Shown one piece after another: positions 3,404-28,110 of a stretch of 28,110 bases of DNA; the first letter of the stretch is position 1, and every line of letters starts with the position of its first letter. Source of the stretch: a virus; the IMG/VR virus record IMGVR_UViG_3300020410_000049, positions 1-28,110 of that record. One strand, written 5' to 3'. The notes beneath the pieces were generated by a model. It saw nothing but the letters and a program-made list of their open reading frames with translations, had not been told where the DNA came from and ran no database searches. The translations under genes were made by a program, and so were the position numbers.

Positions 3404-3421
3404 TGAAAGGTAAAGAAAATG
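3404..3421 (+). promoter_or_regulatory. ribosome binding site of the major capsid gene
   Basis: TGAAAGGT lies seven bases before the ATG of the capsid gene, followed by an A-rich spacer. The leader of the decoration gene (4556-4573) has the same TGAAAGGT core at the same spacing, which is consistent with matched high-level translation of two abundant virion proteins. Confidence 0.6.
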
Positions 3422-4546
3422 GCCTATCAAGGTTTTAATCCTGTTGCATTTTCACGTACCGCCGCAACCACACTAGCTAAGCACATCCGTGACGTTGAAG
3501 AAGCTATGCTTCGCAACTATCAGCTGGGCGCTTTGTTGGAAGCAGCTGGACGAGTAAATTACAACAATAGTGGTGAAGGTTTAGATTGGCCGGTTCAATA
3601 TCGTCTACATACTGTAGAAGGTAATACTGGCGAAACTCAACGTAACTTCGCACGACGTAACTTGTGGAAGACGGCTAACTTGGAATATCGTGGCTACCAA
3701 GCTACGGACTCCATGTACTACCGTGAATTCCGTTCTAACCGTGGTGAAGAAGGCATCGTCAAAGTTTTTGATAACTTTGTAGAACGTCTTGAAACTTCTA
3801 TTACGCAAGCCCTCGGTGGTGAGTACTACGGTAATGGTGATAGCAATAAGCAGGCTTGGCACGGTCTTGAGTCTATGTTTGGAACAATTTCCCAGACATA
3901 TACTATTAATGATAATACGCCACGTACTGCTAATGCAGCAGATCAAGCTGGTGTTCCAACCGTAACTTATGCTGGAATTTCAACTATTCCGGGAACTTAT
4001 GGTGGTGAGCAGGAAGCAAGCACTTCTTGGCCTACTGGAATCGCTGACAGTGAGTACGACTTCTGGAGCCCGCTAGTTGTGAACTATAAATCAACTGCAT
4101 TTAGCGGTGCGACTGATGATTTCGCTGGTCAGGGTGATGAAGCAATGCGTTTTGCCATTATTCACGCACAGCGTAATAGTAGCCAGAATGGTCAGATTAC
4201 TAACGTAATGCTGGCTCGTGATCTGTTCATGGATCTTTTGAATCTTATTGATGAAAAAGAACGTATCCAGATTACTAGTGAACATCAGCTTCGAGCACTT
4301 GGTTTCAAGAATACTATCAACTTTGATGGTATTGAAGTTAGCTGGGAAGCTGCCATTCCTAATAGTGTTGGATATGGCTTGAACTACGATAATATCGAAC
4401 TTAAATCAATGGATGACGCACTGCTTCGCAGTGAAGGTCCTGAGTACGATATTCATAGTCAGGCTTTCAACGCTGTTGTTAGTACATTGTCTAACTTGAA
4501 ATTCTCAACTCCGAGAAACTTCTTCAAGTTGCAAGGTCTCGCTTAA
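3419..4546 (+). CDS. major capsid protein
   Basis: A 375-residue protein that fits a HK97-fold major capsid protein in length and layout. It has a helical N-terminal arm (about 20-45), a flexible region around residues 68-90 where the E-loop would be, a long helical stretch around residues 115-140 (the likely spine helix) and a mixed C-terminal domain. No short motif is diagnostic in this family, so the call relies on length, position between scaffold and decoration genes, and codon use: 20 of its 21 arginines use CGN codons (15 CGT), a sign of high expression unlike the AGA-rich late genes downstream. It would form the icosahedral shell with the scaffold as assembly partner. A strong ribosome site precedes ATG 3419. 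Confidence 0.8.
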   Translation: MAYQGFNPVAFSRTAATTLAKHIRDVEEAMLRNYQLGALLEAAGRVNYNNSGEGLDWPVQYRLHTVEGNTGETQRNFARRNLWKTANLEYRGYQATDSMYYREFRSNRGEEGIVKVFDNFVERLETSITQALGGEYYGNGDSNKQAWHGLESMFGTISQTYTINDNTPRTANAADQAGVPTVTYAGISTIPGTYGGEQEASTSWPTGIADSEYDFWSPLVVNYKSTAFSGATDDFAGQGDEAMRFAIIHAQRNSSQNGQITNVMLARDLFMDLLNLIDEKERIQITSEHQLRALGFKNTINFDGIEVSWEAAIPNSVGYGLNYDNIELKSMDDALLRSEGPEYDIHSQAFNAVVSTLSNLKFSTPRNFFKLQGLA

Positions 4547-5677: not shown

Positions 5678-6217
5678 ATGAGCCAAAGGGAATGCAAGAC
5701 TTGCCACGTAAAGTTTCCTCTAACTAAAGACTTCTGGCACAGAGACAATAGCTCATCTGATGGATACCGCAAGGTGTGCAAGATGTGTCGTGCTGAAGAG
5801 CTTGAGAAGAAGAGGAAGGACGAGGTTGATGACAGACTTAAGAAGCTAGAAGACGCTGGCTTCAGTATGTTAGATAACCTAGTTAATGGCGGGTCTGAAG
5901 TTCCTCATATGGCTGAAACATTCCAGAGAATCATGGAAGCCTTTGGTGGGCCGGGAGGGTTTGCTTCTCAGCTCATGTCTACATACTTCAGGGCAGCACC
6001 GGGATCTCAGCAACGACAGAGAATACTAGACTCTGTTCTTCGCCTTAATATAAAGGTGTCTGAGTCTGGAGCTGCCAAGAAGTCTCTGGATGAGCTAACA
6101 AATGAAGAGCTGGATAAAGAGATTGAAAAGTCTGTCATGTCCATGATGGATCCTGATATGTCCACCCTGTACAATTTGGCCCCACCTGATGGCAAAGAAG
6201 AAACCGAGGCCGGTTAA
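5678..6217 (+). CDS. zinc-finger protein in the small-terminase position
   Basis: A 179-residue protein. The N-terminus has a four-cysteine zinc finger (C6, C9, C34, C37) with the phage-typical sequence FWHR...DGYRKVCKMCR between and around the ligands. A charged coiled-coil helix follows at about 38-62, then a helical middle domain and an acidic helix at about 135-155. The gene overlaps the start of the terminase large subunit by 29 bases and sits where small terminases are commonly encoded, so a role in DNA recognition for packaging is plausible. Similar N-terminal zinc fingers also occur in phage HNH-type proteins, but no HNH catalytic set is visible. The zinc finger is firm; the terminase role is inferred. 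GGAGG lies just upstream of the start. Confidence 0.6.
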   Translation: MSQRECKTCHVKFPLTKDFWHRDNSSSDGYRKVCKMCRAEELEKKRKDEVDDRLKKLEDAGFSMLDNLVNGGSEVPHMAETFQRIMEAFGGPGGFASQLMSTYFRAAPGSQQRQRILDSVLRLNIKVSESGAAKKSLDELTNEELDKEIEKSVMSMMDPDMSTLYNLAPPDGKEETEAG

Positions 6218-7919
6218 TATACCGGAACCACAAAATATCATAACTTCTGTTACACAGCACCAGCGTTCTGTGGTCAGAGGTTTACATGCGGAGAGGGCTC
6301 GCAGGGAATGTGAAGCCCTACGTTTGTATGAACCCTTGCCGTTTCAAGAGAAGTACCATTCATGCCAGTCAAAAGAATGTCTGATACAAGCAGGAAATCA
6401 AGTCGGGAAGTCCTTGGCAGCATTTGTGGAAGATGCTCGTGCTGCGACTGGGCAGGATCCTTACGGGAAATATCCCAAAGAAAACGGGACGATGGTGTGT
6501 CTGGGAATGGACGAAGGTCACATTGGGCGGACGATACACAAGTACCTGTTCAGGGCTGGAGCATACAAGATCATCAGGGATCACATCAATGGCAAATGGA
6601 GAGCTTGGAAGCCTTGGTTAGAAGCAGACTGGGAAAGAAAGGCGGAAGCAAAGCCAGCCCCTCCTCTTATACCTCCTAGGTTCATTAAGCAGTTTGCTTG
6701 GAAGAAGCGTGCCCAGCATGTCTTTGAGATATGTGAGTTGCATAATGGCTGGACAATCTATGCCATGGGTTCAAAGGGTGATCCATCTCAGGGTTTCCAA
6801 GCAGACTTAGTACATATCGACGAGGACTTGGAGCGCTCTGAGTGGTATGACGAAATGATTGCACGTCTCTCCATGAGAGATGGAAAGCTACGTTGGTCTG
6901 CACTACCTCACTCCAAGAACGATGCATTGGTCAATCTTGTGGAAAGGGCTGAAGATGAAGAGGGAGAAGAGAACCCAAGCACAGTTGTCATTAGAGCTAC
7001 CATCTTTGATAACCCGTTTATGCCAGAACAAGTTAAGCAAGAAAATATTAAAAGATGGAAAGCAAAAGGGGAAGATGAGTTTAGAAAGCGGGCTCTCGGT
7101 GAGATGGTCACTGATAGCGTGCTTATGTACCCAACTTTCTCTAAAGATGCACACGGCGCTATTAAGTTCGACGAGCCAAGGAATAAAGTCCAAGAGTACC
7201 TCACCAGTAACAACGGAACCCCGCCGAGGGACTGGTGTCGCTATATGGTTGTTGACCCCGGCCACAGTGTATGCGCTGTTACGTTTTATGCCATCCCTCC
7301 TCCTTCTTGGGGCGATTATGCTGTTGTTTATGATGAGTTGTATATTAAGCATTGTACTGCTAGTAAATTTGCTGAGCATGTCAAAGCAAAAGTAGGGAGC
7401 GATCACTTTGAAGCGTTCGTTATTGATGCCCATGGTGGTCGTATCCGTGATATCGGTACTGGGGTTCTTCCTAGAGTACAGTATTCTAAAGAGCTGGAGC
7501 TTCGTGATGTTCGTAGTTACTCTACTGGTTTTGGCTTCCTTAATGGCAGCGATGACGTTGCTGGCCGAGAATTAAAGTTAAGGAACTGGCTAAACATTAG
7601 AAGCAATGGATATCCCAAGGTTTTAATTGTTACTCAGAGATGCCCCAATCTTGTTAAAGAGTTCAGTAGATTTAAGAAAAAAACAATCAATGGCTTCATA
7701 ACGGACGAAGGAAACAGACGAGGCCCGTGTCATGCCATAGAAACACTAGAATATGCAGTGGCTCACGGGCTAAAATATGTTAAGCCCAAAACGAAAGTTG
7801 TTAAGTCTGGTATAGTGCAAGACATACTTAAAGGTAGGAAGGCTAGGTCTGCTCAACGTAAGGCGAGGGATCGTGGTCTTGCTTCTTCAAATATCACCCT
7901 AGGACCCCGTGGAGAATAA
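6189..7919 (+). CDS. terL: terminase large subunit
   Basis: A 576-residue packaging motor, typical length for the family. The ATPase domain has a Walker A loop AGNQVGKS at residues 68-75 and a Walker B strand LVHIDED at 207-213 with the catalytic acid. The C-terminal nuclease domain (RNase H fold) begins around residue 350 with VVDPGHS (Asp 356), continues with VIDAHGG (Asp 413), and ends near a conserved HAIETLEYAV helix around residues 515-524. It cuts concatemeric phage DNA and translocates it through the portal. It overlaps the zinc-finger gene upstream and is followed one base later by the next gene's ATG, so packaging genes appear translationally coupled. Confidence 0.93.
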   Translation: MAKKKPRPVNIPEPQNIITSVTQHQRSVVRGLHAERARRECEALRLYEPLPFQEKYHSCQSKECLIQAGNQVGKSLAAFVEDARAATGQDPYGKYPKENGTMVCLGMDEGHIGRTIHKYLFRAGAYKIIRDHINGKWRAWKPWLEADWERKAEAKPAPPLIPPRFIKQFAWKKRAQHVFEICELHNGWTIYAMGSKGDPSQGFQADLVHIDEDLERSEWYDEMIARLSMRDGKLRWSALPHSKNDALVNLVERAEDEEGEENPSTVVIRATIFDNPFMPEQVKQENIKRWKAKGEDEFRKRALGEMVTDSVLMYPTFSKDAHGAIKFDEPRNKVQEYLTSNNGTPPRDWCRYMVVDPGHSVCAVTFYAIPPPSWGDYAVVYDELYIKHCTASKFAEHVKAKVGSDHFEAFVIDAHGGRIRDIGTGVLPRVQYSKELELRDVRSYSTGFGFLNGSDDVAGRELKLRNWLNIRSNGYPKVLIVTQRCPNLVKEFSRFKKKTINGFITDEGNRRGPCHAIETLEYAVAHGLKYVKPKTKVVKSGIVQDILKGRKARSAQRKARDRGLASSNITLGPRGE

Positions 7920-10627: not shown

Positions 10628-11168
10628 TTACGAGAGACATAGAACCGAGTCCGAAAGGCTAGGTGTTTTAGAGTTCTTCGAGAAATTGATTGATGAAGGG
10701 AATAATCCCGGCTTTGCAGCGATGCTAGCCCAGAGGCAACCTCCGGGTTCCAAGGGTACAGAGCGTGCATTCCTAGAAGGTATGCATGGATGGGCAGATA
10801 ATATTAGCAAGGAAGCGGCTACTGAGTTGCATCGCCAAGCTAAGAATGCTGGAGTATCCACGCAGGGCAAGAAGTATGTAGGTGGACTTGGGCGACCGAC
10901 TGACCCCGGCGCTTGGGTTTCAACTATGGATGATGTTACTGAGACTGCTAAACGTAAAGGTTTGACAGTCACAGGTGCCATAAATTATCAGGCTCCCGCC
11001 CAAAAGCCTAAAAGAGTTAGAATGGCAGAAGACCTAGTTCAGCACCAAATGGCAGTCGAATGCCACAAAGATCCCGGTTTAGCCGAAAAAGTTAAGAAAA
11101 GCCCCAAGAAGATGAGAGATCTCAGGGAAAAAGTTATTAACAAACATTCTAAGCCTGTGAAGGAATAG
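10593..11168 (+). CDS. conserved hypothetical phage protein with GRPxDPxAWVS motif
   Basis: A 191-residue protein starting inside the portal gene end. The N-terminus is basic; a middle segment at about residues 90-130 reads GKKYVGGLGRPTDPGAWVS followed by a DDV helix and GLTVTGAIN. I recognise this arrangement (tyrosine, G-L-x-R, DP-x-AWVS, xDV, G-V-x-G) from uncharacterised phage proteins encoded close to portal genes, without a known activity. The C-terminal 60 residues are very Lys/Arg-rich and may bind DNA. The overlap with the portal indicates co-translation. Function unknown; a packaged DNA-binding protein would suit the charge, by inference only. Confidence 0.65.
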   Translation: MPRKPNPRKAIDYERHRTESERLGVLEFFEKLIDEGNNPGFAAMLAQRQPPGSKGTERAFLEGMHGWADNISKEAATELHRQAKNAGVSTQGKKYVGGLGRPTDPGAWVSTMDDVTETAKRKGLTVTGAINYQAPAQKPKRVRMAEDLVQHQMAVECHKDPGLAEKVKKSPKKMRDLREKVINKHSKPVKE

Positions 11169-11172
11169 TTAA

Positions 11173-13002: not shown

Positions 13003-14180
13003 TGGCCGTATCTGAACATGTGTACACTTATAGTGATCTCATGGACTATGTGACCGCCATTACAGATGGTGGCGCTAGAACCAAAGATCTTCGTATGCAC
13101 AAGGAAACAATACTTGGTGCATATCGCGATCTATCCATGTGTTATGAGTGGAAGTACTACATAAAGGAAGCTCGTGTAGATCTTGTTGCTAATTATAATA
13201 CTGGAACCATACAGTATCTTGATGCTACGCGAGAAGTTGAACTTACTGACGGATCGTGGCCTACATGGTCTAAGTATGGTCGCATAAGAATAAATGATGT
13301 CGTTTATGATATTGAGGGTGATGCAACTGATGACGATAGAAAAGTTTTAACGACAGATTCAAACCCCGGTGCATCCATAGCGTCAGGTACTAGTTATGAT
13401 CTTTTTCGCAGTGTTTATTCCTTACCGGATGACCTCTGGCGTATTTACGATGTCGGAGTAGAAAAAAATCATTGGATCACTTACTACATTTCCCCAACCG
13501 AGTGGAGACAACGAGAGGCATTCCATCAAGCCTCTGGTCAAACTTGGGCGTGGACGATCATGAAAGACCCTGATAATGACGGGCTTTGGTCGCTGTGTGT
13601 TGATCCTAGTCCCAGTACCGCTGAACCTTTGATGTTTGTGTACAGACGTAAGCCAAGGGTGCTTCGGTGGGCAGGAACTGAAACTGCGGCACGCACTGGC
13701 ACAACATCAGGTTCGGTTTCAGCAGGTGGAACAGAAATCGCTATAGCTAGCGCTACAATGTCTCCTTCAATGGTAGGATCCATTATTCGTATAGGTGACA
13801 CTTCTACAGTTCCCACAGGTCTTGCTGGCAGCAGCCCTTATGTGGAGCAGGCCAAGATAAAATCTATTGCTGGTAATACGCTTACGCTTTCCGAAGGTGT
13901 TACCAATGCGATTTCATCAGGCACTAAGGTTATGATTACCGATCCGGTAGACATGTCAGACACAATGCTAGAGGCGATGAAGGCTCAAATTGAATATAGG
14001 TTTGCACGATTTGCCAATGACCAGAGAGGTGTAGCTACTGCACGTCAGGTCGCTGATTTTGAGCTAAGGCGTGCTTTGGAAGCTGACCAGTTACATCATG
14101 CTGGAATTGGGCAAGGTTCACATTCTCGCTACCACTATCTGTTCAGTAACTTAGATGGTCAGATCACAACGGATGCCTGA
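13002..14180 (+). CDS. tail adaptor (T7 gp11-like tubular protein A)
   Basis: A 392-residue protein matching the adaptor ring that links portal and tail nozzle in short-tailed phages. The N-terminal helical pattern (YSDLMDYV, then ILGAYRDLSMCYEW) and the region DLWRIYDVGVE to SPTEWRQREAFHQ are typical of this family, as is the C-terminal helix EYRFARFANDQRGVATARQVADFE that packs on the portal. It is about twice the length of T7 gp11 (196 residues) because two beta-rich segments are inserted, at about residues 57-138 and 233-314; these look related to each other and to segments in the nozzle downstream. It starts within the stop codon of the previous gene (TAATG) and is followed after two bases by the nozzle. 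Confidence 0.8.
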   Translation: MAVSEHVYTYSDLMDYVTAITDGGARTKDLRMHKETILGAYRDLSMCYEWKYYIKEARVDLVANYNTGTIQYLDATREVELTDGSWPTWSKYGRIRINDVVYDIEGDATDDDRKVLTTDSNPGASIASGTSYDLFRSVYSLPDDLWRIYDVGVEKNHWITYYISPTEWRQREAFHQASGQTWAWTIMKDPDNDGLWSLCVDPSPSTAEPLMFVYRRKPRVLRWAGTETAARTGTTSGSVSAGGTEIAIASATMSPSMVGSIIRIGDTSTVPTGLAGSSPYVEQAKIKSIAGNTLTLSEGVTNAISSGTKVMITDPVDMSDTMLEAMKAQIEYRFARFANDQRGVATARQVADFELRRALEADQLHHAGIGQGSHSRYHYLFSNLDGQITTDA

Positions 14181-14182
14181 TA

Positions 14183-16741: not shown

Positions 16742-17733
16742 TGTATAGCTCCCATGCTAGGGCTTTTGACCGACTAATTGATGCAGGTATGACACCAGAT
16801 CAGGTTCATATACTGAAAAGCATACTATGTAACCCTGATTCAGAGCTGGAACACAACGGTAGCATAACTGTCCGTGGTGAATTTAGCGGGATGGACATAC
16901 GTACAGCTAGATGGGCTAAATGTTCCTATAATTGGGACTATTACTACGATATTCCAAGCAAAGAGGGTAAACCCGGCTTTGTTTTAGCCAGAGAATGCTC
17001 TGATTCAGCAGGAAGAGACATAACTGGAAGCCAGATTAAAATATTTTTACCTACCGGGCGAGGTCAGGATCCGAGCGTAGAGGCTGGCGACGTAATCATG
17101 TTCTTCAAAATGTCTGATGGTACATATATGGCTTCAGGCTACGGGGATGCACGCATTGGCAGCATAATGATGGGGATTCAGGGCGATAAGGCGGCTCGTG
17201 GCTGGGGAATCATGGACGGCACGGAGAATGATGAGACAAAGGGAGGGTCAGGGTACGATTATTCTGGAAAATTCCCAAGATGTTGGTCATCTACCGCACA
17301 GAACGGAACAACAGGTGGAGCTGCAACTCAGTCCATTACCGTTGCTGTAGCAAATCATAATATTTCGGATATTGCCTCTGGAATGGGGGCGCATAGCGGC
17401 AGTGATGTTGCCGGAACTCTTTCTGACCACCCCGCAAGTGGGCTTAGCCATAAACACGAGGTGTCAGACACAACTATAGGTACTGGAACTACGTCTACCG
17501 TAGGTGTTTTAACCGGAGATAGCGTTGGCGGTACTTTTTACACAAAACTTGCCAATGCTGGAGGAAGTGACTTAGCACACTCTGGTTCAGGTAGTTTGAG
17601 CCACAGCGGTAGTGGTACAATATCACATACGGTAACTGTAAATAGTGGGAATCCTGTTGATACAGTGCCTCCTTTTGGTTACGTCTCCATAATGGAGCGT
17701 CTAAATAACTCTCGTACCAAGATAGGTGATTAA
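16741..17733 (+). CDS. collar-domain tail fibre/receptor-binding protein
   Basis: A 330-residue protein following the nozzle. Residues about 1-150 would form the tail-attachment part. From about residue 153 it follows the phage tail-collar pattern: RGWGIMDGTEND (like GW-CDG-T), GKFPRCW, then a Gly/Ser-rich region with GLSHKHE (H237, H239) and repeated SHSGSG, ending in VPPFGYVSIMERL, the classic PPY-x-x-L-x-x-I-x-R terminal strand. In T4-type fibres His-x-His pairs bind iron or zinc along the needle; a similar role is likely here for HKH and the following His-Ser-Gly repeats. It should be a trimeric fibre that contacts the host surface. Start overlaps the nozzle stop. Confidence 0.78.
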   Translation: MYSSHARAFDRLIDAGMTPDQVHILKSILCNPDSELEHNGSITVRGEFSGMDIRTARWAKCSYNWDYYYDIPSKEGKPGFVLARECSDSAGRDITGSQIKIFLPTGRGQDPSVEAGDVIMFFKMSDGTYMASGYGDARIGSIMMGIQGDKAARGWGIMDGTENDETKGGSGYDYSGKFPRCWSSTAQNGTTGGAATQSITVAVANHNISDIASGMGAHSGSDVAGTLSDHPASGLSHKHEVSDTTIGTGTTSTVGVLTGDSVGGTFYTKLANAGGSDLAHSGSGSLSHSGSGTISHTVTVNSGNPVDTVPPFGYVSIMERLNNSRTKIGD

Positions 17734-17734
17734 T

Positions 17735-18832
17735 ATGAGTGTTCAATTTCCTAATCCCTCTAACTGGAGTGACGAGCGATGGGCGGCAACTTGGAACAGG
17801 ATAAACAAAAGACAGCAGGAGGCGGAGAGAAAACGCCTAGCTGCAATGGCAAGAAATAATCCTCAGGCTTATTTCCAGCATCTACTTGGCCTTGGTCATA
17901 CTCCTCAGCAAGTACAGCAAATGATGGGATTAGGTCCCATGAATGCAAATCAAATGTGGCTTGCTAATGCTGCAAACCAAGCGAACGCCAATGTCCAACA
18001 GGCTAAATGGAATGCTGCGGCTCAAAGTCCATTTGTTGCACAGAGACTTTTGGGCGGCAGAGGTGGCTGGGGAGGCATGGGGTCAATCCATGATTGGATG
18101 TGGAACCAATTTCAGCAGGCACCGAGAGACTACATGGCCGGTCTTGATAATATGAACCGGCTGCAGGATCAGAATTTAGCGCGGATGAGAGAAAATGAGT
18201 ATAATCGCGCTACTCTATGGAACCTTGAACAGGACAGGAAATTAAAGAGAGATATATATAGCCAAATGTTAGACAACCAGAATTCCATGACTGAGGCATT
18301 TTCTGATGCCTTGCCCGCGTGGGCAGATGCTTTTGGTAAAGGTTTATCTGGGATCAACTGGTTTAATACAGCCGGAGGTCAGGGCGCACGGGATATTGAT
18401 GGTGCGACAGTTACTTCGGAAGATATTCCCGCAATGATAGCTGAGCGCCGTAGTGGTGCACCAAGATTCTCAGCGCGAAATAACAGGAGTTCCGACATGG
18501 CGGGAGTATCTGATGTGGCTAGTGATGAGATTACTGGTGCGATAGCTGGAGCTAGACGATCTGGAGACTCTAGGTTCAGGGGGGCTACCGGATCTAAGCA
18601 TATAGATGCCAGAACTAAGTCTGATGCCACCAGAGCAGGGGTAGTCTCCGATAAAATTCTAGATAAGCTTGGGCTTTCTACGGAAGCCAAGCGCAATACA
18701 GCCAGAAATGAGCAGGCGGCAATTACTAATGCCGCTATACCTGCACTGGCTCAACAGAGTAATAGATATAAGGCTATTGGCGCTTTAGCGAATACCCTGT
18801 TTAACACACTAGGTGGAGCATTTAATGTATAG
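17735..18832 (+). CDS. Ala/Gln-rich protein with internal duplication, probable virion protein
   Basis: A 365-residue protein; ATG 17735 is chosen because AGGTG (17724-17728) lies at the right distance, whereas the upstream GTG would consume it. Residues about 1-130 are Gln/Asn/Ala-rich and helical (with QQVQQMMGLG), 140-190 form a charged helix. Residues 227-255 and 262-290 are an internal duplication: S-x-D/E-x-I, x-x-IA, RRSG, RF recur in the same order (RRSGAPRF and RRSGDSRF). The C-terminus is a hydrophobic helix (YKAIGALANTLFNTLGGAF). No family was recognised. Placement after the tail genes is where internal or pilot proteins are encoded, and the last helix could interact with membrane. 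Role inferred. Confidence 0.65.
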   Translation: MSVQFPNPSNWSDERWAATWNRINKRQQEAERKRLAAMARNNPQAYFQHLLGLGHTPQQVQQMMGLGPMNANQMWLANAANQANANVQQAKWNAAAQSPFVAQRLLGGRGGWGGMGSIHDWMWNQFQQAPRDYMAGLDNMNRLQDQNLARMRENEYNRATLWNLEQDRKLKRDIYSQMLDNQNSMTEAFSDALPAWADAFGKGLSGINWFNTAGGQGARDIDGATVTSEDIPAMIAERRSGAPRFSARNNRSSDMAGVSDVASDEITGAIAGARRSGDSRFRGATGSKHIDARTKSDATRAGVVSDKILDKLGLSTEAKRNTARNEQAAITNAAIPALAQQSNRYKAIGALANTLFNTLGGAFNV

Positions 18833-19565: not shown

Positions 19566-21824
19566 ATGGCTAGTTACTTTGATATGAAGCGTAACAACAA
19601 GGGTACGCTTGCTGGACAGCTTAACAAGAATGCTATGTCTGCGCAGTCTCCTATGGGAATGCCTAGGAAAAGCAGTCAAAGAGGAAGATCTCCTAGCTTG
19701 TCTAGCGCATTCGCCTCTCCTTTCGGCGGTCTTTCAGGAAGCAGGCAGCAACAGCAAATCGGTGGGGGGGTAGAGCAAAGACGGCCTGCACAGCAGGGAA
19801 TCCAAGGCATGGGTCAGCAGCAACAGGCTCAGGCTCCTGCTATGGGGAATATCCTTGGGAAGAAGATAGGTGGATTTGGCGACAATCAACCCCAACAACA
19901 GGCTGGGATGGCTGGAATAGGCCAAACTGCTGGACTCTCTGGTGCTGCACGGGCAGATGCTAGCCTTGGTGGTGGCCCAGCAGCAGATCGCGGCCTGTCT
20001 GGTGGCGGAATGGCAAACCTCTCCAACGCTTACGGAACTGTTGAAGAGTGGGGACGTAAGCTGCAAGAGAATCTTGACCAGATGATAGGCCGTGGTGGAC
20101 GTGGACAGCAACCAGTTGGCCAAGGTGGTGGTCAGGGTCAAGGCGGAGGCCAAGGTGGTGGAGGTCAAGGCGGTGGCGTTGGCGGCGGTGGTCAGGGCGG
20201 TGGTGGTATAGTTGCTCCGCATGACGACTTTAATAACCCACGCGACCAAGACGATGGCATGTGGGAAGTCCCTGTTCCTACACCTGAAACTGAGGATAAA
20301 GGTGCAGCTGGAGTTTGGGGGGATTATGGATGGGGAACTGAAGAAACTCCGGGCGTAGGAACTCACGGTAGCCCAAACTGGGTAACAGCTAGTGGTGCAT
20401 GGATCGGAGAAGAAGAAGAGCTTCCTGAGTGGTGGAGTGGAATGCGAGGACAGTATGAAGACACCGCAGGAGGACAATTTCGTCCAATTGGCTCCAGTCA
20501 GTTCTGGGGAGGGCCTACCGGAGAACAAGTCAGGGAGTTGAGCTTTGGGGAAGGACATTTAGGAGATTTGTCTGGAAAGAATCCCATGCTTAATAGGGCT
20601 CTTTGGCATGAAGTGCATGACAATACCCCAATCCTTGGAAGATTCATAAAGACGGCTAGAGGACAGGCAGAGCAAGCTATAAAGATATTCAATTCTGCTC
20701 CCGGTCTTGAGGCTCTTAGGAGCATGGAGCAGTTTGGGTTAGATAGTGATGCAATGGCCATGATAACCGGCCTTACTATTGACGATGTGGGTCATGCATG
20801 GACTCAAACCCTGATAAATAAAATCAATAAGAGCATAAAAGATTCTAATAATCCAGACATCAGAAAGCCACCAATTAATGGCCATGAGTGGGATCCTATT
20901 GGGATGATATCTCAGTTTTCTTTTGCATTACCTGAACCTGTCACCCTTACGTGGAGGGAATTTGATCCTAATCATCCAGAGATACAAAGGTATCAGATCT
21001 TAGGCAATAACTTGCCTAAGACGCTTCCTGAGTATTACTTTAGCCAAGGAGGTCAAAGGTTTTATATCAGGTCTAGGCCGGAACATGAAGGTCTTACCGA
21101 CCATGCTGGGGTACCTTTTATAGATGACCCTAGAACCAATCCAGATAACTGGATCGAGCGTGAGAGAACCATGTCTTATATACAGATTCCTAAGACTGGT
21201 GACTCCCATCTTAATTACTTCCATAAGCCTACTGTTAGTAGACAGGATTTCGAAGACTTCGAGGCTTGGTGGAGTGGCATAGCTGTTGATGATCCGGGCC
21301 GTGATGCTGGCGGTGGAGATGTGGGAGAAGACATCGGCGGTGGTATAGGAGATGGCGGCGGTGGTGGTATTGGAGATGGCGGTGGCATTGGAGATGGCGG
21401 TGGCGGCGGCATAGGAGACGGTGGTGGAGTTATTGACGGTGGTGGTATAGGAGATGGAAGGCGGCGAGAGTGGGGAAATGATCTGGAACAGGGTCACGGT
21501 GGCGGTGGAATTGGTGGAGGCGGAATAGGTGGTGGCCAGCAACCAGTCGGAGGCCAACAACCAGTTGGAGGTCAACAACCGATAGGCGGCGGTATGAATG
21601 GATCTGCCAATATTGCAAGTGGACTTGTTGGTAGTGGAGGTCAAGGTGGCCAGTCTCGTGGATATGCGGCACCAACCGGAGGACAGCTTATGGATCAGCT
21701 AGGTGTTGGGCAAAATGTTGGAAACTTTGGTTCTCCTCAGCAACAGCAATCGCAGATTCAAGCCAGAAATAAAGCTAATGTGGCACTCGGTAATTATCTA
21801 TCTAATCTTTACAATATGGTGTAG
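19566..21824 (+). CDS. large Gly/Gln-rich protein with one central folded region
   Basis: A 752-residue protein of unknown function. The N-terminus (1-60) is basic and Ser-rich; 60-160 is Gln/Gly-rich; 181-215 is almost pure Gly/Gln. A central region at about 235-575 looks folded: several Trp-rich segments (GVWGDYGWGTEE, EWWSGMRGQYED), a helical part (LNRALWHEVHDNTPILGRF and following), then a beta/alpha part (PEYYFSQGGQRFYIRSRPEHEG). A second Gly-rich stretch (about 585-680) holds GIGDGG repeats and three GGQQPV units, and the C-terminus is a helix (ARNKANVALGNYLSNLYNMV). The motif GQQPVG occurs in both Gly-rich stretches. Probably a virion component, by position. The start has a GGAAT weakly matching a ribosome site. 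Confidence 0.65.
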   Translation: MASYFDMKRNNKGTLAGQLNKNAMSAQSPMGMPRKSSQRGRSPSLSSAFASPFGGLSGSRQQQQIGGGVEQRRPAQQGIQGMGQQQQAQAPAMGNILGKKIGGFGDNQPQQQAGMAGIGQTAGLSGAARADASLGGGPAADRGLSGGGMANLSNAYGTVEEWGRKLQENLDQMIGRGGRGQQPVGQGGGQGQGGGQGGGGQGGGVGGGGQGGGGIVAPHDDFNNPRDQDDGMWEVPVPTPETEDKGAAGVWGDYGWGTEETPGVGTHGSPNWVTASGAWIGEEEELPEWWSGMRGQYEDTAGGQFRPIGSSQFWGGPTGEQVRELSFGEGHLGDLSGKNPMLNRALWHEVHDNTPILGRFIKTARGQAEQAIKIFNSAPGLEALRSMEQFGLDSDAMAMITGLTIDDVGHAWTQTLINKINKSIKDSNNPDIRKPPINGHEWDPIGMISQFSFALPEPVTLTWREFDPNHPEIQRYQILGNNLPKTLPEYYFSQGGQRFYIRSRPEHEGLTDHAGVPFIDDPRTNPDNWIERERTMSYIQIPKTGDSHLNYFHKPTVSRQDFEDFEAWWSGIAVDDPGRDAGGGDVGEDIGGGIGDGGGGGIGDGGGIGDGGGGGIGDGGGVIDGGGIGDGRRREWGNDLEQGHGGGGIGGGGIGGGQQPVGGQQPVGGQQPIGGGMNGSANIASGLVGSGGQGGQSRGYAAPTGGQLMDQLGVGQNVGNFGSPQQQQSQIQARNKANVALGNYLSNLYNMV
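21331..21459 (+). repeat. imperfect GIGDGG-encoding repeat tract
   Basis: Repeated blocks of the form GGTATAGGAGATGGCGG, encoding (G)GIGDGGG, occur four to five times within about 130 bases. Codons for Ile and Gly vary between copies, so the tract is imperfect at the DNA level but regular at the protein level. Confidence 0.75.
21531..21584 (+). repeat. three tandem 18-base repeats encoding GGQQP(V/I)
   Basis: Three head-to-tail units with the plan GGN-GGN-CAR-CAA-CCN-(GTN/ATA) follow the GIGDGG tract in the same gene. Differences between units are nearly all synonymous. GQQPVG also appears once near base 20110 in the same reading frame. Confidence 0.8.
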
Positions 21825-21826
21825 AA

Positions 21827-22597
21827 ATGGCTGGCATTATTAGTCAAGAACATGCAGACAGGATAAACCGAGGGGATACGAGTAGGTATTCCACATCTAC
21901 TTCCAGTGGTAATAACACCTCGGGAAGCTCATCCAACAATGCATTATCTAGTGCATTTGGTAGCGATCAAGGACATCAGGTTCGGAGGCACCGCAATATA
22001 GGTACTCCAAGCGATGCTATCAAAGTTAGGACATCTATTGGACTAGATGATTTTAATACTGACTATTTAGGGTCTGAACAGAGAAAGATCATGGGGGCTA
22101 ATGCCGCACAGCAGTGGCAGAAGTATAATCCCATCTCGGCTAAGGAGAATGCACAGAAGAAGGGATTGAGTTTTGATGCAGGATCAGCCCTAAGAAGCAC
22201 GGCTCCTGCTGAGGCTACAGCAATAACTAATGTTGATGACATAATGGCTGGATCATATGAAGAGGGAGTCCTTAAGGATAATCTTCACAAGCTCAAGATG
22301 TCTGGGATGCAGTCAGACGAGGCTGTCAATCTTGTTAAGGAAATGATAAGTCAAGGTCAGCTTGGGATGGATGTTTATAATACATTACAAAATGTTCAAG
22401 CCAGAATGTTGGCAGCTGATATAACCGGCAGATCTAATCTCATGAACCAGATGTATGGTGGATTCGGTAACCTTATGGGCGGTATGCTTGGTTCAATTAG
22501 TCCGTTTGGCGGAATGGGCGGCCTTGGCGGACTTGGGGGCTTAGGTGGCTTGGGTGGCCTAGGCGGTTTGGGTGGATTTCAATCAGCATTTGGGTAG
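21827..22597 (+). CDS. hypothetical protein with GGL-repeat C-terminus
   Basis: A 256-residue protein starting three bases after the preceding stop. About the first 50 residues are Ser/Asn/Thr-rich and disordered. Residues about 65-215 are helical and charged (EGVLKDNLHKLKMSGMQSDE, then AVNLVKEMISQGQLGM). The last 30 residues are a hydrophobic Gly/Leu repeat (GGL)n ending in GFQSAFG. The GGL tail is encoded by six 9-base repeats. A flexible hydrophobic tail of this kind could associate with membrane or with itself, but this is inference. No family was recognised. It immediately precedes the giant gene, with which it is probably co-transcribed. Confidence 0.65.
   Translation: MAGIISQEHADRINRGDTSRYSTSTSSGNNTSGSSSNNALSSAFGSDQGHQVRRHRNIGTPSDAIKVRTSIGLDDFNTDYLGSEQRKIMGANAAQQWQKYNPISAKENAQKKGLSFDAGSALRSTAPAEATAITNVDDIMAGSYEEGVLKDNLHKLKMSGMQSDEAVNLVKEMISQGQLGMDVYNTLQNVQARMLAADITGRSNLMNQMYGGFGNLMGGMLGSISPFGGMGGLGGLGGLGGLGGLGGLGGFQSAFG
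22520..22573 (+). repeat. six tandem 9-base repeats encoding GLG
   Basis: Six head-to-tail units of the plan GGN-(CTN/TTR)-GGN encode the Gly/Leu tail. Four different leucine codons (CTT, TTA, TTG, CTA) are used across the six copies. Confidence 0.85.
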
Positions 22598-22601
22598 TTA
22601 A

Positions 22602-25600
22602 ATGGCTAAAAAGAAACAATCCCCACTCCGTGAGAGGACAATACGGAGCCTGCGAAAACTTGGGTTCACTAATCCAGCCGTCGAGGATTTATTAAGACGA
22701 CTTCTCACGGAAACTCCTGCGCATCTTACTCCCAGCCTGTTTCAAGCGGATCCATTTGAATATGCAGACAGGATGCAGATGTATGAGACTCTCTTCGGGG
22801 AGCAGGCACCTGTTCCAGAAGAGGTTGGCCCACCTCTATCCAAGGAAGAGCAGCAGCGACGTTTACATGAGGAGATACTACGTCGTAACGCTATTCAGAG
22901 ACAGCTGAATGAGTTTACAGGTGCTTCTGAGTTAGGGGCTCCCCCTCCACCTTCCCCAGATAGGCCAGCCCCTCCTCCATACCCACCCTTTCCCCCTACC
23001 TCAACGCCTCCAGCTCCTGTGGCAGAGGATCCATACTTAAGGCAGACATTATTTCCCTTCACTCGTAGCGAAATAGATCAGGAGAAATTAACTAAGATCG
23101 CTCATCTTATCGCACAAGATGATATCAATAGGGATGTAAATATTAAATCGTTTGATAAGCATCGCACTTATCAGAATGATCGTTTTGTGTCTAGTGAAGG
23201 TTTTCGGAATGCTGAAGGCGCATTGAAATCCATTAATGGAGATCTGAACCCCAGAAGATTCTTTTCTCCATTTGCTATAAAAATACTATCAGATAAGGAC
23301 ATAGATATACCGAGAGCTGTAAATGATATTCAGTATCTAGACAGCTTAATCAAAGATCGGACTATAAAAGCTGATGTTGCTAGGCAGGTATTAAACTTTA
23401 GTATTGCCCACCAAAGAATATCTGGGGCGACCGATCCGACATTGCCTACCGCAGGCAATCCTCGTGGGAACCCTAAGGATACAAAGATTATTGGGGTATT
23501 AGGGGCATCTCCCAAATATCTCAAATCAGATCATAGGCATAAAGAAACTGCTCCGGGAGAGAAGTACGCTTCTTGGAAAGAGGGGACTCCGGCATCCATC
23601 AAAGAGCGTGCCTCCGATGCTTTAAACGCATCTAAGTATGTAAAAGACATGCTTGATGCTGCTTATATAGATGCATTAGCCCGAGGTCAGACCTTTGTGA
23701 TTAGTACAGGTAATGGGCTTGGGGGTATAGACTCGTATGCACGCAAATGGGCAACAGAAGTACTTACGAGAAGGCTAGGAAGAACACCCACCCCCGAAGA
23801 GTTGAGTTATCACCTGCATCTTGAAGGTGCAGAGATGAGTACAACTAGGAATAACAATGTCATTAGCGGCCTTGATCCAAATCACGACGCAGCCATTATT
23901 GTTACAGCAGCCGGAGACCCATCCGAGAAAGCTAATGGGAGAGCCAAGCAGCTTGGAGTCCGCACAGCAACGGTTAGCTTAGACTCAGGGCAAATTAGTC
24001 ACCAGTCCGGCCCTCCAGAGCAGAAGGTTGATTTAATAGTAACCGAATCAGACTTTGCACCATCTCCTAAATGGTACTATCCAGAGCAAGCAGGGTCAGG
24101 AAGAGCCGAACAGGCCCAAGGTGGAACTAGAGGTCCAGTTCCGAGACAGACTACTGATGCTGAGGATATAATAGCCGCCCTTCTTTCTGATGATCCCCCA
24201 CCTTACAGCGAGAAGCTTGAAGCATTAAGGGATGTTCTTTACGATGTCTCTAATCCTCTAGTGGCAGAGCGAGGTTACGAAGGAGCCGGAGAGCCGGGAT
24301 CCGAGGAGGATCCACGGGTGATGCTTGAGGGAATGGAGACTCGTGATCCCAGAAGAGATACTGCTGTTGGCAGAACTGGGGATCAATCCAGAGAAGAAGT
24401 TCTGGAGAGAATACTAGAGGAGATTGCAGATAAGCAGCACCACACGGGGCAAACATCCGAAGAGGTGGTGGATGAGTGGATGTCACTGTATGACACTTAT
24501 CAGGAGGAAACTTCTCGGGCTATGGAAGATGATGCCATGGAGAAACTCCGTGGTGATTCACTAGAAGACCGTCAGATGCTACGTGTTGATGATGTCATTG
24601 ATACTTACTATGAGCTTGCCGAGCGATTTGGTATCAGTGAGAGTCAGATGCAGGCAATACTGGAGTCTTATCCGGGTAATATCGCGAATGATATCATAGG
24701 CAGTAATTACAGTGTTGCCGAGGCGCTGCCTGAGCATGCACAAAATATATATCGCTTCGAGCGTGATATTAAAAGCACTAAGGGCCCAGATGATCCCGGA
24801 AGCGTTTTCAATCCAGCTGCTCCAGATCCTATCGACCCCACACTTCAGGCCCAATCCAATGTAGGTGACGACTATATATCTAGGCCAGTTCCAAGAGAAC
24901 CATTTATCTCGGCTGAAGAGATTATTAGATCCGCCAGTGAGAGACAGCGAGTGGTGCATTCTGGAGGCGCTAAAGGTGCTGACAAAGCATGGGAAGATTT
25001 GTCTAGGGGGTTTGCTACACCTGTTCACTATCAAGTAGAAGGTCAACCCACGCCCCATGGAAACACCGATGTATCCAAAGGGGAAGCAGCCGAAGCAGAT
25101 CAGCATTTACGTAAGGCTAATGAGACCCTAGGAAGAGATCTGGACAAGGTAAAAGAGTACACAAAGAATCTCTTCAGAAGAAACTGGAGTCAGGTCAAGA
25201 ACTCTGATGCTGTATATGCCATTACTAATGGCTTTGATGCACCAAATATTGTAAGCGGTGGCACTGGATGGGCTGTCCAGATGGCTATAGATAACGGTAA
25301 GCCTGTATATATATTTGACCAGAGTGGAAGATCGGGAAACTGGCAGCAGTGGAATTACGACACAGGGCAGTTCGAATATATATCTAAACCACCTGTTCCT
25401 CCACAGAATTTTGCAGGGATCGGAACAAGGAAGATTAACCAGCGTGGCGTAGATGCAATCAAGACTGTTTACAGTGGTATTGCTACCGCTGAAATTTCTG
25501 GAATAGGATCAGTTGGTGGATCTGATTCCCAGAGAGGTGTGTCTGAGTATATTGTTGGCATGATGGATGATGTCCTAGACTTCCAGAGAAAGACTAAAAA

Positions 25601-28110
25601 GATTTGGACAGGAGAACATCTACATGATCGAAGTTCAGATTCCAAGTACACTCGCAAAACACTTGGCATTATCAATCCAGAAGGCAAGTGGGAGTACTAT
25701 GATGCTGGCGGAGAGGAGCTGGCAGGGGAGGAGCAAGTACGCAGGATAGTTGGAGAAGACCTAGCTCCATTCGGGATGGATGCGCTTAAGAGAAAAATAC
25801 GAGCTGTCCCTAGCACCCATAGATTATCCATGGACTTTGAGTTTGGCAAGAAAAAATACTCGCCAAAGTCTGCACCGCATGTTAGTGCTAAAAATACATT
25901 TGATGCCGTACTTGAAGGAACAAGAACAGCTACTACCGGAAAGCCTAGACAGTTTGAGAAGGTAAATATTGGCGACCTAATTGAGATCCATTCTAAGAAC
26001 GATGCAAGTGGAAGTAAGGTTCATGCAATTGTCACAGCTAAGCGGGACACAGACGGATTAACTCCTGAGCAGTGGGCAGGGAAGGAAGGCTATGATCCTA
26101 ACGTGGCTGAGGAATCTTGGAATATCTATAAGGAAGGCCACACTCAGATAGAGTACGAGGTTGTAGCCATCTCAAGAAAGGATGGTTCTACTCATTACTT
26201 CACTCCCGGTATTATGGAACCATACTACAGAGGACCAAAGGATCCACTCACTGAAGGTCTCTCTAAGTCACTTAAGCATGAAAAGAGAATTCCTAAGAGG
26301 ATGTTTGGTGCTGTAAGCTATATAGACAATATAGCCATGGGCAATGTTGAAGACTTTGCTGCGGAGATTAATAGAAAGTATACAGCGCAAGATGTTACCA
26401 ATGGACTTAAAAAGCCAGATGGAACACCTGTTACCAAGCAGGATGTAGGGAAGAATGTACTATCCGTTGATAATCTCAAGGAGTACATGAAAGATCTTTC
26501 GGATACATATCAATATAAGAGTCGCAAGAAGCTTGTTGAAGATCTAGGCACCCTTAAAAGATCAGGAAGACTTGTAAAGAGGATAGAGAGCAGGCTGTCA
26601 GAGTGGGAGGAACACCATCCTTCGCACCCAGCATCAGAGATGGAAAGCGCTCAGCGAGAAAGGGATGCGGAATCTACAGTGAGAGACTTAATTCAGGGAA
26701 CCCGAACCCAAAGATCTGTGCCTGATACGCCTCCTCTGTCTGGGCCTATGGCTGGCCCTCCAAGTATAAGGTTTAGCCCCCATCAGGAGGCACAAGGCGG
26801 TGCTCCTCCTCCTGAACCGAATCCTGAAATGTTAATAAGAGAACATTTACAGGATATGATAGACAAACGAAATGTTTATCCAAAAAACGGTGGATATACA
26901 ACAGCGGAGTACAGAAAGGCGGCTGGAGTAGATCCTAAAGATACTTCAGTAAGCAAACGCGATGCAGTTAAGATACTTAGGGGTATGCTCCCAGAAGTAA
27001 AAACACCGCAAGAGACTGTCATTGCAGAATCTGTAAAAGAATTGCAAGAGATTGCTCAACAGGCTGAACGTATAGATAGCTCTGTAGAAGAGGTCGCACC
27101 TGAACCACGCCGAATAGATTTATCTCAGAAAACGCCTGCAGAACTAATAGATGCGTGGCAAAGGGGACGGGAAGTTCTTGATACAGTGGGTGAATTCGAG
27201 GATCCTAGCCATCAGGAATGGTTTGATGCCGTTCGCAACGAGTTGGCTAAAAGAAAGCTAGACCCTCGTCCTGTTAAATTTAATGCTGTCATGGACAACG
27301 ACTGGCTGAGATTGGCAAGAGATGCTCAAAGTCTTCTTGAAAACATTGATGACCCTGCTAAGAAGCGGAGCTTCCATAAAACGTGGAGCGATAGTGACAT
27401 ACAGTGGGCATTAGATAATTGGGATAATGCTCCAAAAACTATGGAGCGGGATCTTTTGAATAATATCTTGGAAGTCGGTGACGCATTGCAGCTCCAGCTT
27501 CCAGAGTTCAGCAGGCCAATGTATGAATCACAAACATTCAATGTAGCTCCCGAAGGTGTTGAGAACCTTTCTGATTTACAGACGCGAGTAGATACGGATA
27601 CATCAGTTGAGCGGAAACATGGTATGGATACAGCATCAGCTGACATTGATGCTACTACCCTTGCAGAAACTCCAGCTCGAACTCCAACTCCACCACCACA
27701 GTCTCCTGATAGCGCAGTTCCACCAGTTGATCCTGCGACTACTCCTGCTGAGGAGGATATAAGCAGGGCGAGACAGCTTGGGCTAGGTGTTAGGGGAGCA
27801 ATAGGTAATCTATGGAGAGGTGCTTCCCAGCTTTGGAACCCTCAAACCTACAACGAAGCGGGTCAGCCAATCTATGACGATAGTGCTAAACATAAGTCAG
27901 TGGATCATGACCGGATAAAAGTTGGTGACTTCGTAATGTGGACTCCAACTGAAGATACCAAGAACGCTGACAAGCTAACAAGACCTCGCCGTGTAGAAGA
28001 AATAATCCGAAACAAGGATGGCAATATTCAGTACAAGGTCAGTGGGTTCACTGGTCTTGTCGATCCAGATAGTTTGACATCAGCCGAGAGGCGTACTGGC
28101 GGTGTCAGAA
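22602..28110 (+). CDS. giant multidomain protein with two SLOG-like domains and an ASCH/PUA-like domain (3' end outside window)
   Basis: The frame from ATG 22602 stays open to the last base, giving at least 1836 residues. It starts four bases after the previous stop. N-terminal part: basic MAKKK start, helices, then a Pro-rich linker (about 105-140). Residues about 294-484 form a Rossmann-like domain: KIIGVLGAS, VISTGNGLGGIDSYA (366-380), AAIIVTAAGDPS, VDLIVTESD. Residues about 783-957 are a clearer SLOG-type domain: VVHSGGAKGADKAW (784-797), a charged helix, RRNWSQVKNSDAVYAI, VSGGTGWAVQMAIDNGKPVY (884-903), NFAGIGTR (936-943). Residues about 1085-1190 resemble ASCH/PUA-like domains: SAPHVSAKNTFDAVLEGTRT, VNIGDLIEI, LTPEQWAGKEGYD, QIEYEVV. 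A small helical segment lies near 1420-1475 and an SH3-like strand set near 1767-1826. Linkers are Pro/Glu-rich. SLOG domains bind or process nucleotides and NAD-like ligands; ASCH domains bind RNA or modified bases. The layout fits a phage polyvalent protein delivered with DNA; that role is inferred. Confidence 0.8.
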   Translation, partial: MAKKKQSPLRERTIRSLRKLGFTNPAVEDLLRRLLTETPAHLTPSLFQADPFEYADRMQMYETLFGEQAPVPEEVGPPLSKEEQQRRLHEEILRRNAIQRQLNEFTGASELGAPPPPSPDRPAPPPYPPFPPTSTPPAPVAEDPYLRQTLFPFTRSEIDQEKLTKIAHLIAQDDINRDVNIKSFDKHRTYQNDRFVSSEGFRNAEGALKSINGDLNPRRFFSPFAIKILSDKDIDIPRAVNDIQYLDSLIKDRTIKADVARQVLNFSIAHQRISGATDPTLPTAGNPRGNPKDTKIIGVLGASPKYLKSDHRHKETAPGEKYASWKEGTPASIKERASDALNASKYVKDMLDAAYIDALARGQTFVISTGNGLGGIDSYARKWATEVLTRRLGRTPTPEELSYHLHLEGAEMSTTRNNNVISGLDPNHDAAIIVTAAGDPSEKANGRAKQLGVRTATVSLDSGQISHQSGPPEQKVDLIVTESDFAPSPKWYYPEQAGSGRAEQAQGGTRGPVPRQTTDAEDIIAALLSDDPPPYSEKLEALRDVLYDVSNPLVAERGYEGAGEPGSEEDPRVMLEGMETRDPRRDTAVGRTGDQSREEVLERILEEIADKQHHTGQTSEEVVDEWMSLYDTYQEETSRAMEDDAMEKLRGDSLEDRQMLRVDDVIDTYYELAERFGISESQMQAILESYPGNIANDIIGSNYSVAEALPEHAQNIYRFERDIKSTKGPDDPGSVFNPAAPDPIDPTLQAQSNVGDDYISRPVPREPFISAEEIIRSASERQRVVHSGGAKGADKAWEDLSRGFATPVHYQVEGQPTPHGNTDVSKGEAAEADQHLRKANETLGRDLDKVKEYTKNLFRRNWSQVKNSDAVYAITNGFDAPNIVSGGTGWAVQMAIDNGKPVYIFDQSGRSGNWQQWNYDTGQFEYISKPPVPPQNFAGIGTRKINQRGVDAIKTVYSGIATAEISGIGSVGGSDSQRGVSEYIVGMMDDVLDFQRKTKKIWTGEHLHDRSSDSKYTRKTLGIINPEGKWEYYDAGGEELAGEEQVRRIVGEDLAPFGMDALKRKIRAVPSTHRLSMDFEFGKKKYSPKSAPHVSAKNTFDAVLEGTRTATTGKPRQFEKVNIGDLIEIHSKNDASGSKVHAIVTAKRDTDGLTPEQWAGKEGYDPNVAEESWNIYKEGHTQIEYEVVAISRKDGSTHYFTPGIMEPYYRGPKDPLTEGLSKSLKHEKRIPKRMFGAVSYIDNIAMGNVEDFAAEINRKYTAQDVTNGLKKPDGTPVTKQDVGKNVLSVDNLKEYMKDLSDTYQYKSRKKLVEDLGTLKRSGRLVKRIESRLSEWEEHHPSHPASEMESAQRERDAESTVRDLIQGTRTQRSVPDTPPLSGPMAGPPSIRFSPHQEAQGGAPPPEPNPEMLIREHLQDMIDKRNVYPKNGGYTTAEYRKAAGVDPKDTSVSKRDAVKILRGMLPEVKTPQETVIAESVKELQEIAQQAERIDSSVEEVAPEPRRIDLSQKTPAELIDAWQRGREVLDTVGEFEDPSHQEWFDAVRNELAKRKLDPRPVKFNAVMDNDWLRLARDAQSLLENIDDPAKKRSFHKTWSDSDIQWALDNWDNAPKTMERDLLNNILEVGDALQLQLPEFSRPMYESQTFNVAPEGVENLSDLQTRVDTDTSVERKHGMDTASADIDATTLAETPARTPTPPPQSPDSAVPPVDPATTPAEEDISRARQLGLGVRGAIGNLWRGASQLWNPQTYNEAGQPIYDDSAKHKSVDHDRIKVGDFVMWTPTEDTKNADKLTRPRRVEEIIRNKDGNIQYKVSGFTGLVDPDSLTSAERRTGGVR

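What the first reader, a model, noticed from the sequence alone, without database searches (positions are those of the whole stretch)
22602..28110. Giant open frame at the end of the structural module looks like a phage polyvalent protein
At least 1836 codons without a stop, running off the window, directly after the low-complexity virion genes. Distinct folded domains are separated by Pro/Glu-rich linkers. The family-level precedent is phage and plasmid 'polyvalent proteins', which combine many effector or protection domains in one chain thought to be delivered with the DNA. The particular combination here (two SLOG-like domains, one ASCH-like domain, an SH3-like segment) is one I do not recognise as a described protein. 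Delivery and anti-defence function are inference.
Basis: partly seen in the sequence, partly recalled or inferred. Interest (0 to 1): 0.8.

Follow-up and report, generated by a model that had tools for sequence, protein, structure and literature searches.

The report
Phage giant ejection-type protein carrying effectors
A marine phage carries a giant gene at the end of its virion-gene block whose protein strings together nucleotide-binding-type domains that other, unrelated phages build into proteins they shoot into the cell with their DNA, so it is probably a pre-made counter-defence package, although neither injection nor activity has been tested.

Summary
The open frame is real: 22602-28109, 1836 codons, open at the contig end, in the codon usage of the virion genes. 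Seven related phage genomes carry a giant ORF at the same place (complete ones 1539-2682 aa).

Of the proposed domains: SLOG no. 2 (775-958) is solid (phrog_768, E 2.5e-18); ASCH (1058-1202) is supported by its fold (best PDB matches are all ASCH) and by a 21-locus family; SLOG no. 1 is an alpha/beta domain of unproven type; the SH3-like end was not tested.

New here: every ASCH relative (21/21) and 26 of 67 SLOG2 relatives sit in giant ORFs of unrelated phages. These include an N4-like virion RNA polymerase, crAss-like giants and two ORFs containing T7-type internal virion proteins. In two other phages ASCH is nested inside SLOG2, so the two look like one unit. Syntenic giants in sister phages swap these for NADAR, cpYpsA-SLOG, DUF7831 or FtsK-gamma cassettes.

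Best reading: a polyvalent, ejection-type cargo protein whose SLOG/ASCH unit probably binds or processes nucleotide immune signals on entry. Delivery is inferred, activity untested. It is a new variant of a known kind: SLOG and ASCH are not named in the polyvalent-protein paper, and the metallopeptidase theme is absent.

The parts
22602..28110 (+). giant open reading frame, >=1836 aa, 3' end beyond the contig
   Evidence: syntenic giants in relatives
22872..23084 (+). Pro-rich linker, residues ~91-161 (up to 41% Pro)
   Evidence: SLOG assignment inconclusive
24924..25475 (+). SLOG2 domain, residues 775-958 (SGGAxGAD ... GGTGWAVQMA ... FAGIGTR)
   Evidence: phrog_768 E 2.5e-18; tblastn; alignment A2; 158 relatives in IMG/VR
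25773..26207 (+). ASCH domain, residues 1058-1202, of a giant-ORF ASCH family with motif K-x-TFDAI-xx-GERTATTR; here the final R is G
26712..26864 (+). Pro-rich linker, residues ~1371-1421
27612..27794 (+). Pro-rich linker, residues ~1671-1731
27903..28091 (+).
   Evidence: sequence only; no relatives in loci held
19566..21824 (+). 752-aa Gly/Gln-rich protein, upstream neighbour in the same gene block
21827..22597 (+). 256-aa protein with Gly-Leu-rich tail; ends 4 bases before the giant's start codon
8318..10627 (+). P22-type portal protein, used to find the relatives
6189..7919 (+). large terminase
3419..4546 (+). major head protein (phrog_9953, E 3e-13)

Best explanation
The gene encodes the visible part of a giant polyvalent cargo protein at the 3' end of the virion gene block of a marine podovirus-like phage. 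Inferred: it is packed in the capsid and leaves it with or just before the DNA, as N4 virion RNA polymerase, crAss cargo and T7 gp16 do, so that its domains act in the cytoplasm before any phage gene is expressed. Shown: SLOG2 and ASCH are recurrent parts of giant phage proteins of several unrelated lineages, and the two form a recurring unit, adjacent here and nested in two other phages. Inferred function: this unit binds, and perhaps processes, nucleotide or ADP-ribose-type signals of host immunity, and the rest of the chain is a swappable set of further effectors. For SLOG2 I favour binding over catalysis. For ASCH, the Lys and Arg essential in the enzyme YqfB are replaced, so I favour binding there too.
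For: The frame is coding and lies directly behind the virion genes. A giant ORF sits at the same place in seven relatives. Pylas virion RNA polymerase, an N4-like protein, contains SLOG2 at residues ~986-1153 (48.6%); in the N4-like phage DEV that polymerase is an ejection protein (PMC10925440). crAss-like giants carry SLOG2 (cr113_1, cr109_1, cr130_1) or SLOG2+ASCH (cr272_1); phicrAss001 virions contain giant RNA-polymerase-associated cargo by mass spectrometry (PMC10172136). In L119 one 1997-aa ORF holds SLOG2 (843-1008) and an internal virion protein segment (1606-1992, E 3.6e-48). In L207 a 1859-aa ORF holds ASCH between two segments of a T7-type internal virion protein. 21/21 ASCH relatives and 26/67 SLOG2 relatives lie in ORFs of >=895 aa. 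ASCH is nested inside SLOG2 at two different places in cr272_1 and L227. Syntenic giants carry NADAR + cpYpsA-SLOG, DUF7831 or FtsK-gamma, and other SLOG2 or ASCH giants carry DUF7831, DUF4326 and NADAR. Iyer 2022 predicts viral SLOG, NADAR and DUF4326 act on ADP-ribose-type immune signals (PMC9503650). DNA identity to G006 is mostly 71-96% up to 22527 and no match is found beyond.
Against: No virion proteomics exists for this phage group as far as I could find. No segment of the window protein or its syntenic relatives matches an internal virion protein profile and hhalign finds nothing. The commonest form of SLOG2 is a stand-alone ~190-aa protein, in some phages beside DNA metabolism genes, which fits a DNA or nucleotide role equally well. 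No ligand is known for this SLOG family, and Pfam's YAcAr model hits neither the window nor Pylas SLOG2. Action on entry is a general argument, not a result.
Confidence: 0.55

Rival explanations
1. Same delivered giant protein, but SLOG2 works as a DprA-like or nucleotide-metabolism module that protects, anneals or primes the incoming phage DNA, and ASCH binds RNA or modified bases; no immune signal is involved.
For: phrog_768 is annotated DprA-like recombination mediator; stand-alone homologues lie next to recombination endonuclease genes in Cr30 and thymidylate synthase in an Asteriusvirus; two SLOG2 giants carry a Dda-like helicase.
Against: The partner set NADAR, cpYpsA-SLOG and DUF4326 is the ADP-ribose signal set of PMC9503650, and most viral SLOGs are read there as NAD-linked.
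Confidence: 0.22
2. It is a tail-fibre or adhesin-like host-range protein: long, Pro-rich and hypervariable at the end of the structural module.
For: It is among the fastest changing genes between sister phages (G005/G017: 69% and 46% pieces with large insertions, where most other genes are 90-100%), as fibres are.
Against: The recognisable domains are intracellular nucleotide-binding types, and relatives of those domains sit in virion RNA polymerase and in ORFs with internal virion protein segments, none in fibres that I saw.
Confidence: 0.1
3. It is mainly a structural ejection protein (T7 gp16 / P22 gp16 role: channel and DNA translocation), with the small domains decorative or decayed.
For: Gene order resembles an ejection operon (752, 256, giant); ASCH has lost residues essential in YqfB.
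Against: phrog_342 does not match the window or seven relatives, and SLOG2 keeps its family motifs.
Confidence: 0.1
4. Assembly or frame artefact.
For: The frame runs off the end of the contig.
Against: Coding statistics hold along nearly the whole length, and complete syntenic giants exist in independent contigs.
Confidence: 0.02

Closest known systems
Phage polyvalent proteins (Iyer et al. 2017, PMC5512222)
   Same: Multi-domain giant, disparate domains, encoded among late virion genes, modular domain swapping.
   Different: No SLOG or ASCH is named in that paper (text search), and no HExxH metallopeptidase motif occurs here or in the syntenic giants.
N4-like virion RNA polymerase of Klebsiella phage Pylas (NC_049444, YP_009882040)
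   Same: Contains the same SLOG2 domain at ~986-1153, 48.6% identical; gene lies at the end of the virion block.
   Different: Annotated as an RNA polymerase; no polymerase domain is recognised in the window protein or in its syntenic giants.
crAss-like giant proteins (cr113_1 gp38, cr130_1 gp79, cr272_1 gp23)
   Same: Carry SLOG2 or SLOG2+ASCH near the C-terminus of 4300-6400-aa proteins.
   Different: Different virus order, recoded stops, no similarity found elsewhere; their equivalence to the phicrAss001 RNA-polymerase cargo was not tested here.
T7-type internal virion protein gp16 (phrog_342 / phrog_6651)
   Same: In L207 and L119 the same ASCH or SLOG2 domains are in one ORF with it.
   Different: No gp16-like (phrog_342) segment is detected in the window phage or seven relatives.
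E. coli YqfB (ASCH amidohydrolase)
   Same: Best structural match of the ASCH model (9kyf, probability 1.00, TM 0.61 by target).
   Different: By motif alignment, catalytic Lys21 is Arg and Arg26 is Gly in the window; no activity implied.
ThsA SLOG domain and phage sponges Tad1/Tad2
   Same: SLOG sensing and sequestration of cyclic ADP-ribose signals is the functional analogy (PMC12043709).
   Different: Analogy only; no sequence comparison was made.

Membership tests
Phage polyvalent proteins | two or more domains of unrelated activity in one large chain | tested here: met
   SLOG2 plus ASCH; a third alpha/beta domain unassigned
Phage polyvalent proteins | encoded among late / virion genes | tested here: met
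Phage polyvalent proteins | modular architecture with domain exchange | tested here: met
Phage polyvalent proteins | zincin-like metallopeptidase (HExxH); common theme, not universal | tested here: not met
   no HExxH in the visible 1836 aa nor in seven syntenic giants
Phage polyvalent proteins | LPD38 domain (phage-type polyvalent proteins) | tested here: inconclusive
   PF18857 hit nothing, but the control genomes did not ring either
Phage polyvalent proteins | carried in the virion and injected | not testable with these tools
   needs proteomics; inferred from relatives of its domains
SLOG superfamily (SLOG2, 775-958) | profile match and glycine motifs | tested here: met
   phrog_768 E 2.5e-18; SGGAxGxD and GGT motifs invariant in A2. 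Pfam YAcAr PF10686 not matched in the window; no PDB sequence relative
SLOG superfamily (SLOG1, ~297-465) | profile or fold match | tested here: inconclusive
ASCH superfamily | ASCH fold | tested here: met
   top eight Foldseek PDB matches are all ASCH, best 9kyf prob 1.00 but E 7e-3 and model pLDDT 57; moderate support
ASCH superfamily | Pfam PF04266 match | tested here: not met
   no match in window or in four relatives' records while 6 of 14 controls rang
YqfB-type ASCH amidohydrolase | Lys21, Thr24, Arg26 (each inactive as Ala) | tested here: not met
   window GTRTATTG: Lys to Arg, Thr kept, Arg to Gly, by motif alignment; relatives keep the final Arg
T7 gp16-type internal virion protein | phrog_342 profile match | tested here: not met
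   (L207 positive in the same search)
N4-type virion RNA polymerase | single-subunit RNA polymerase domain | tested here: not met
   no such Pfam or PHROG match in the visible part or in syntenic giants; the unseen 3' part is untested

The most novel reading that the evidence does not exclude
SLOG2 and ASCH form a composite nucleotide-signal trap that T7-like, N4-like, crAss-like and this marine phage lineage have independently built into proteins ejected with the DNA. It would be a first-wave counter-defence delivered as protein before any phage gene is read, a delivery route I did not find described for SLOG or ASCH domains.
Probability: 0.3. Interest if true: 0.82.

Novelty: new variant of a known kind. 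Interest (0 to 1): 0.62.

Why it matters
Known phage sponges against NAD-derived immune signals (Tad1, Tad2) are described as expressed phage proteins, and viral SLOG domains as typically stand-alone proteins (PMC12043709, PMC9503650). If SLOG/ASCH units ride in the virion, phages would have an answer in the cell at the moment of entry, and giant ejection-type proteins become a searchable reservoir of counter-defence domains. The shared cassettes (SLOG2, ASCH, DUF7831, NADAR, cpYpsA, DUF4326) make that testable: phage Pylas, a named isolate with a known host, carries the SLOG2 domain in its virion RNA polymerase.

Tried and rejected
Whole-protein scans of IMG/VR and of 84,980 genomes found no relative; plasmids none; PDB sequences none; the portal in genome contigs gave no host. 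SLOG1: scan found only G006, PDB profile nothing, Foldseek best matches are Rossmann-type dehydrogenases at TM ~0.2, hhalign to SLOG2 nothing. C-terminal regions of the giants against gp16-like proteins and the downstream ~1270-aa protein: nothing by hhalign. Downstream ~1270-aa protein: no Pfam or PHROG match. PHROGs on the crAss giant gave only SLOG2, so the polymerase part was not confirmed. A combined SLOG2+ASCH alignment for folding was dropped because MAFFT laid ASCH rows on SLOG2. The weak Pfam hits Sigma70_r3 and Amidase_6 are below their cut-offs and were treated as noise; the Nuc_deoxyrib_tr hit falls in SLOG2 and is taken as the related Rossmann fold.

Full report
Observation. The window is a 28,110-base linear IMG/VR contig. 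One frame opens at ATG 22602, four bases after the stop of the preceding gene, and stays open to the contig end: 1836 codons. Chance is excluded: mononucleotide expectation about 1e-47, longest stop-free run in 200 shuffles 210 codons, GC by codon position 0.58/0.44/0.38, and codon usage agreeing with the structural genes in this frame. The window carries a major head protein, terminase, a P22-type portal and a virion structural protein, followed by two low-complexity genes and the giant.

Relatives. The portal found 72 IMG/VR loci and essentially nothing among phage records (one 21%-identity hit), so this is an uncultured lineage; marine is an inference from the environmental data sets, no host was found. 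In seven long relatives a giant ORF lies at the same place: 1576 (G006), 1557 (G005), 1618 (G017), 2682 (G007), 2515 (G002), 1539 (G018) and >=2170 aa (G004, cut by its contig end). In a shorter contig, G001, the place holds ORFs of 409 and 820 aa, possibly broken. A ~260-680-aa ORF and a ~1270-1520-aa ORF follow before the gene direction turns. The window's frame is therefore a real gene cut by the contig end.

Cassette exchange. G006 shares 92% portal identity and 71-96% DNA identity with most of the window up to 22527, but no DNA match is found beyond; at protein level only residues 185-524 align, at 31%. G005 and G017 are 96% alike in the portal. Their giants share 69% and 46% pieces, but G005 has an extra ~360-aa stretch holding FtsK-gamma and G017 an extra ~450-aa N-terminus holding DUF7831. 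G002 has NADAR (weak, below Pfam's cut-off) plus a circularly permuted YpsA SLOG domain at this locus.

Domain SLOG2 (775-958). PHROG 768 E 2.5e-18. The best phage-record matches lie inside giants: Pylas virion RNA polymerase, 48.6% identical, at residues ~986-1153 of about 3820, and the giants of crAss-like cr113_1 and cr109_1 (4328 aa) and cr130_1 (~5800 aa). Stand-alone copies occur in large phages. Of 67 IMG/VR loci measured, 26 are in ORFs of at least 895 aa (three of these only if TAG is read as Gln) and most of the rest in ORFs of about 180-360 aa; some loci are near-duplicates. In L119 the same ORF holds SLOG2 at 843-1008 and an internal virion protein match at 1606-1992, E 3.6e-48. 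Among 17 SLOG2 giants, DUF4326, DUF7831, NADAR, helicases and virion structural families recur. The LOG-type catalytic Glu position reads Gln in GGTGWAVQ (Ala in one of the eight); from general knowledge of the LOG motif PGGxGTxxE, I read this as favouring binding (inference).

Domain ASCH (1058-1202). The only phage-record match is in the 6386-aa giant of crAss-like cr272_1 (E 5e-4). Profile scans gave 21 IMG/VR loci, all in ORFs of at least 1463 aa (L210 read with TAG as Gln); several are near-duplicates. The closest, L207 (42%), is a 1859-aa ORF matching T7-type internal virion protein positions 268-416 and 783-1218, with ASCH in the stretch between. The AlphaFold model is moderate (pLDDT 57), but the top eight PDB matches are all ASCH, led by E. 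coli YqfB. Pfam's ASCH model does not match. YqfB needs Lys21, Thr24 and Arg26 (PMC6972931). Placing the shared motif on those residues, the Lys is Arg throughout, Thr is kept, and the final Arg is Gly in the window alone, so the same reaction is unlikely.

The unit. With HMMs of the three domains run over all ORFs held, ASCH and SLOG2 occur together in three unrelated giants: side by side here (100 residues apart), ASCH nested in SLOG2 after the SGGA motif in cr272_1, and nested before the FAGIGTR motif in L227 (a 245-kb contig). Three different geometries argue for a functional partnership rather than one inherited accident. A paper search for SLOG with ASCH found no description. DUF7831 ties the network together: it occurs in syntenic giant G017, in ASCH giants L211 and L217, in the cr272_1 giant's span and (weakly) in SLOG2 giant L118.

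Domain 1 and the C-terminus. Residues 185-524 include an alpha/beta domain, but the model is poor and Foldseek gives only weak Rossmann-type matches; whether it is SLOG is open. Residues 1-160, 505-755, 960-1055 and 1250-1836 have no relative in the loci held.

Mechanism. Shown: gene, place, cassette swapping, two domain assignments, their occurrence in giants of unrelated phages and in one ORF with internal virion proteins, and the SLOG2-ASCH pairing. Supported by literature: N4-like virion RNA polymerase is an ejection protein (PMC10925440), phicrAss001 virions contain giant RNA-polymerase cargo (PMC10172136), and viral SLOG, NADAR and DUF4326 are predicted to counter ADP-ribose-type signals and are typically stand-alone (PMC9503650). 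Inferred: this protein is packaged and injected; SLOG2-ASCH traps or processes a nucleotide signal; the other cassettes are further effectors. I put delivery at about 0.7 and an immune-signal target at about 0.4; the combined statement is scored 0.55 because it allows binding of nucleotide ligands in general.

Verdict. A new variant of a known kind (polyvalent, ejection-type proteins).

Noticed in passing
window 1-957: Calcineurin-type (MRE11-like) DNA repair exonuclease, phrog_7339 E 2e-35, 97% identical in G006.
   Followed up: no
window 5678-6217: Small protein with Lar-like / endonuclease VII similarity (phrog_5558 E 5e-7), inside the head gene block.
   Followed up: no
window 17726-18832: Hypervariable virion-block gene: 33% identity to G006 while most neighbours are 65-91%; possibly a host-range protein.
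   Followed up: no
window 19566-21824 and syntenic genes: 752-aa protein with long Gly-rich repeats; the syntenic gene grows to 1382-1592 aa in relatives (G001, G002).
   Followed up: no
L217 ORF of 4486 aa: Two ASCH copies and a DUF7831 domain in one giant ORF.
   Followed up: partly
G005 9953-14626, residues 822-877: FtsK gamma (DNA-binding) domain inside a ~360-aa insertion of a phage giant protein.
   Followed up: partly
NC_049444 (Pylas) 2187-2387: A separate small ORF with weak YAcAr SLOG similarity, E 1.4e-5, besides the one in the virion RNA polymerase.
   Followed up: no
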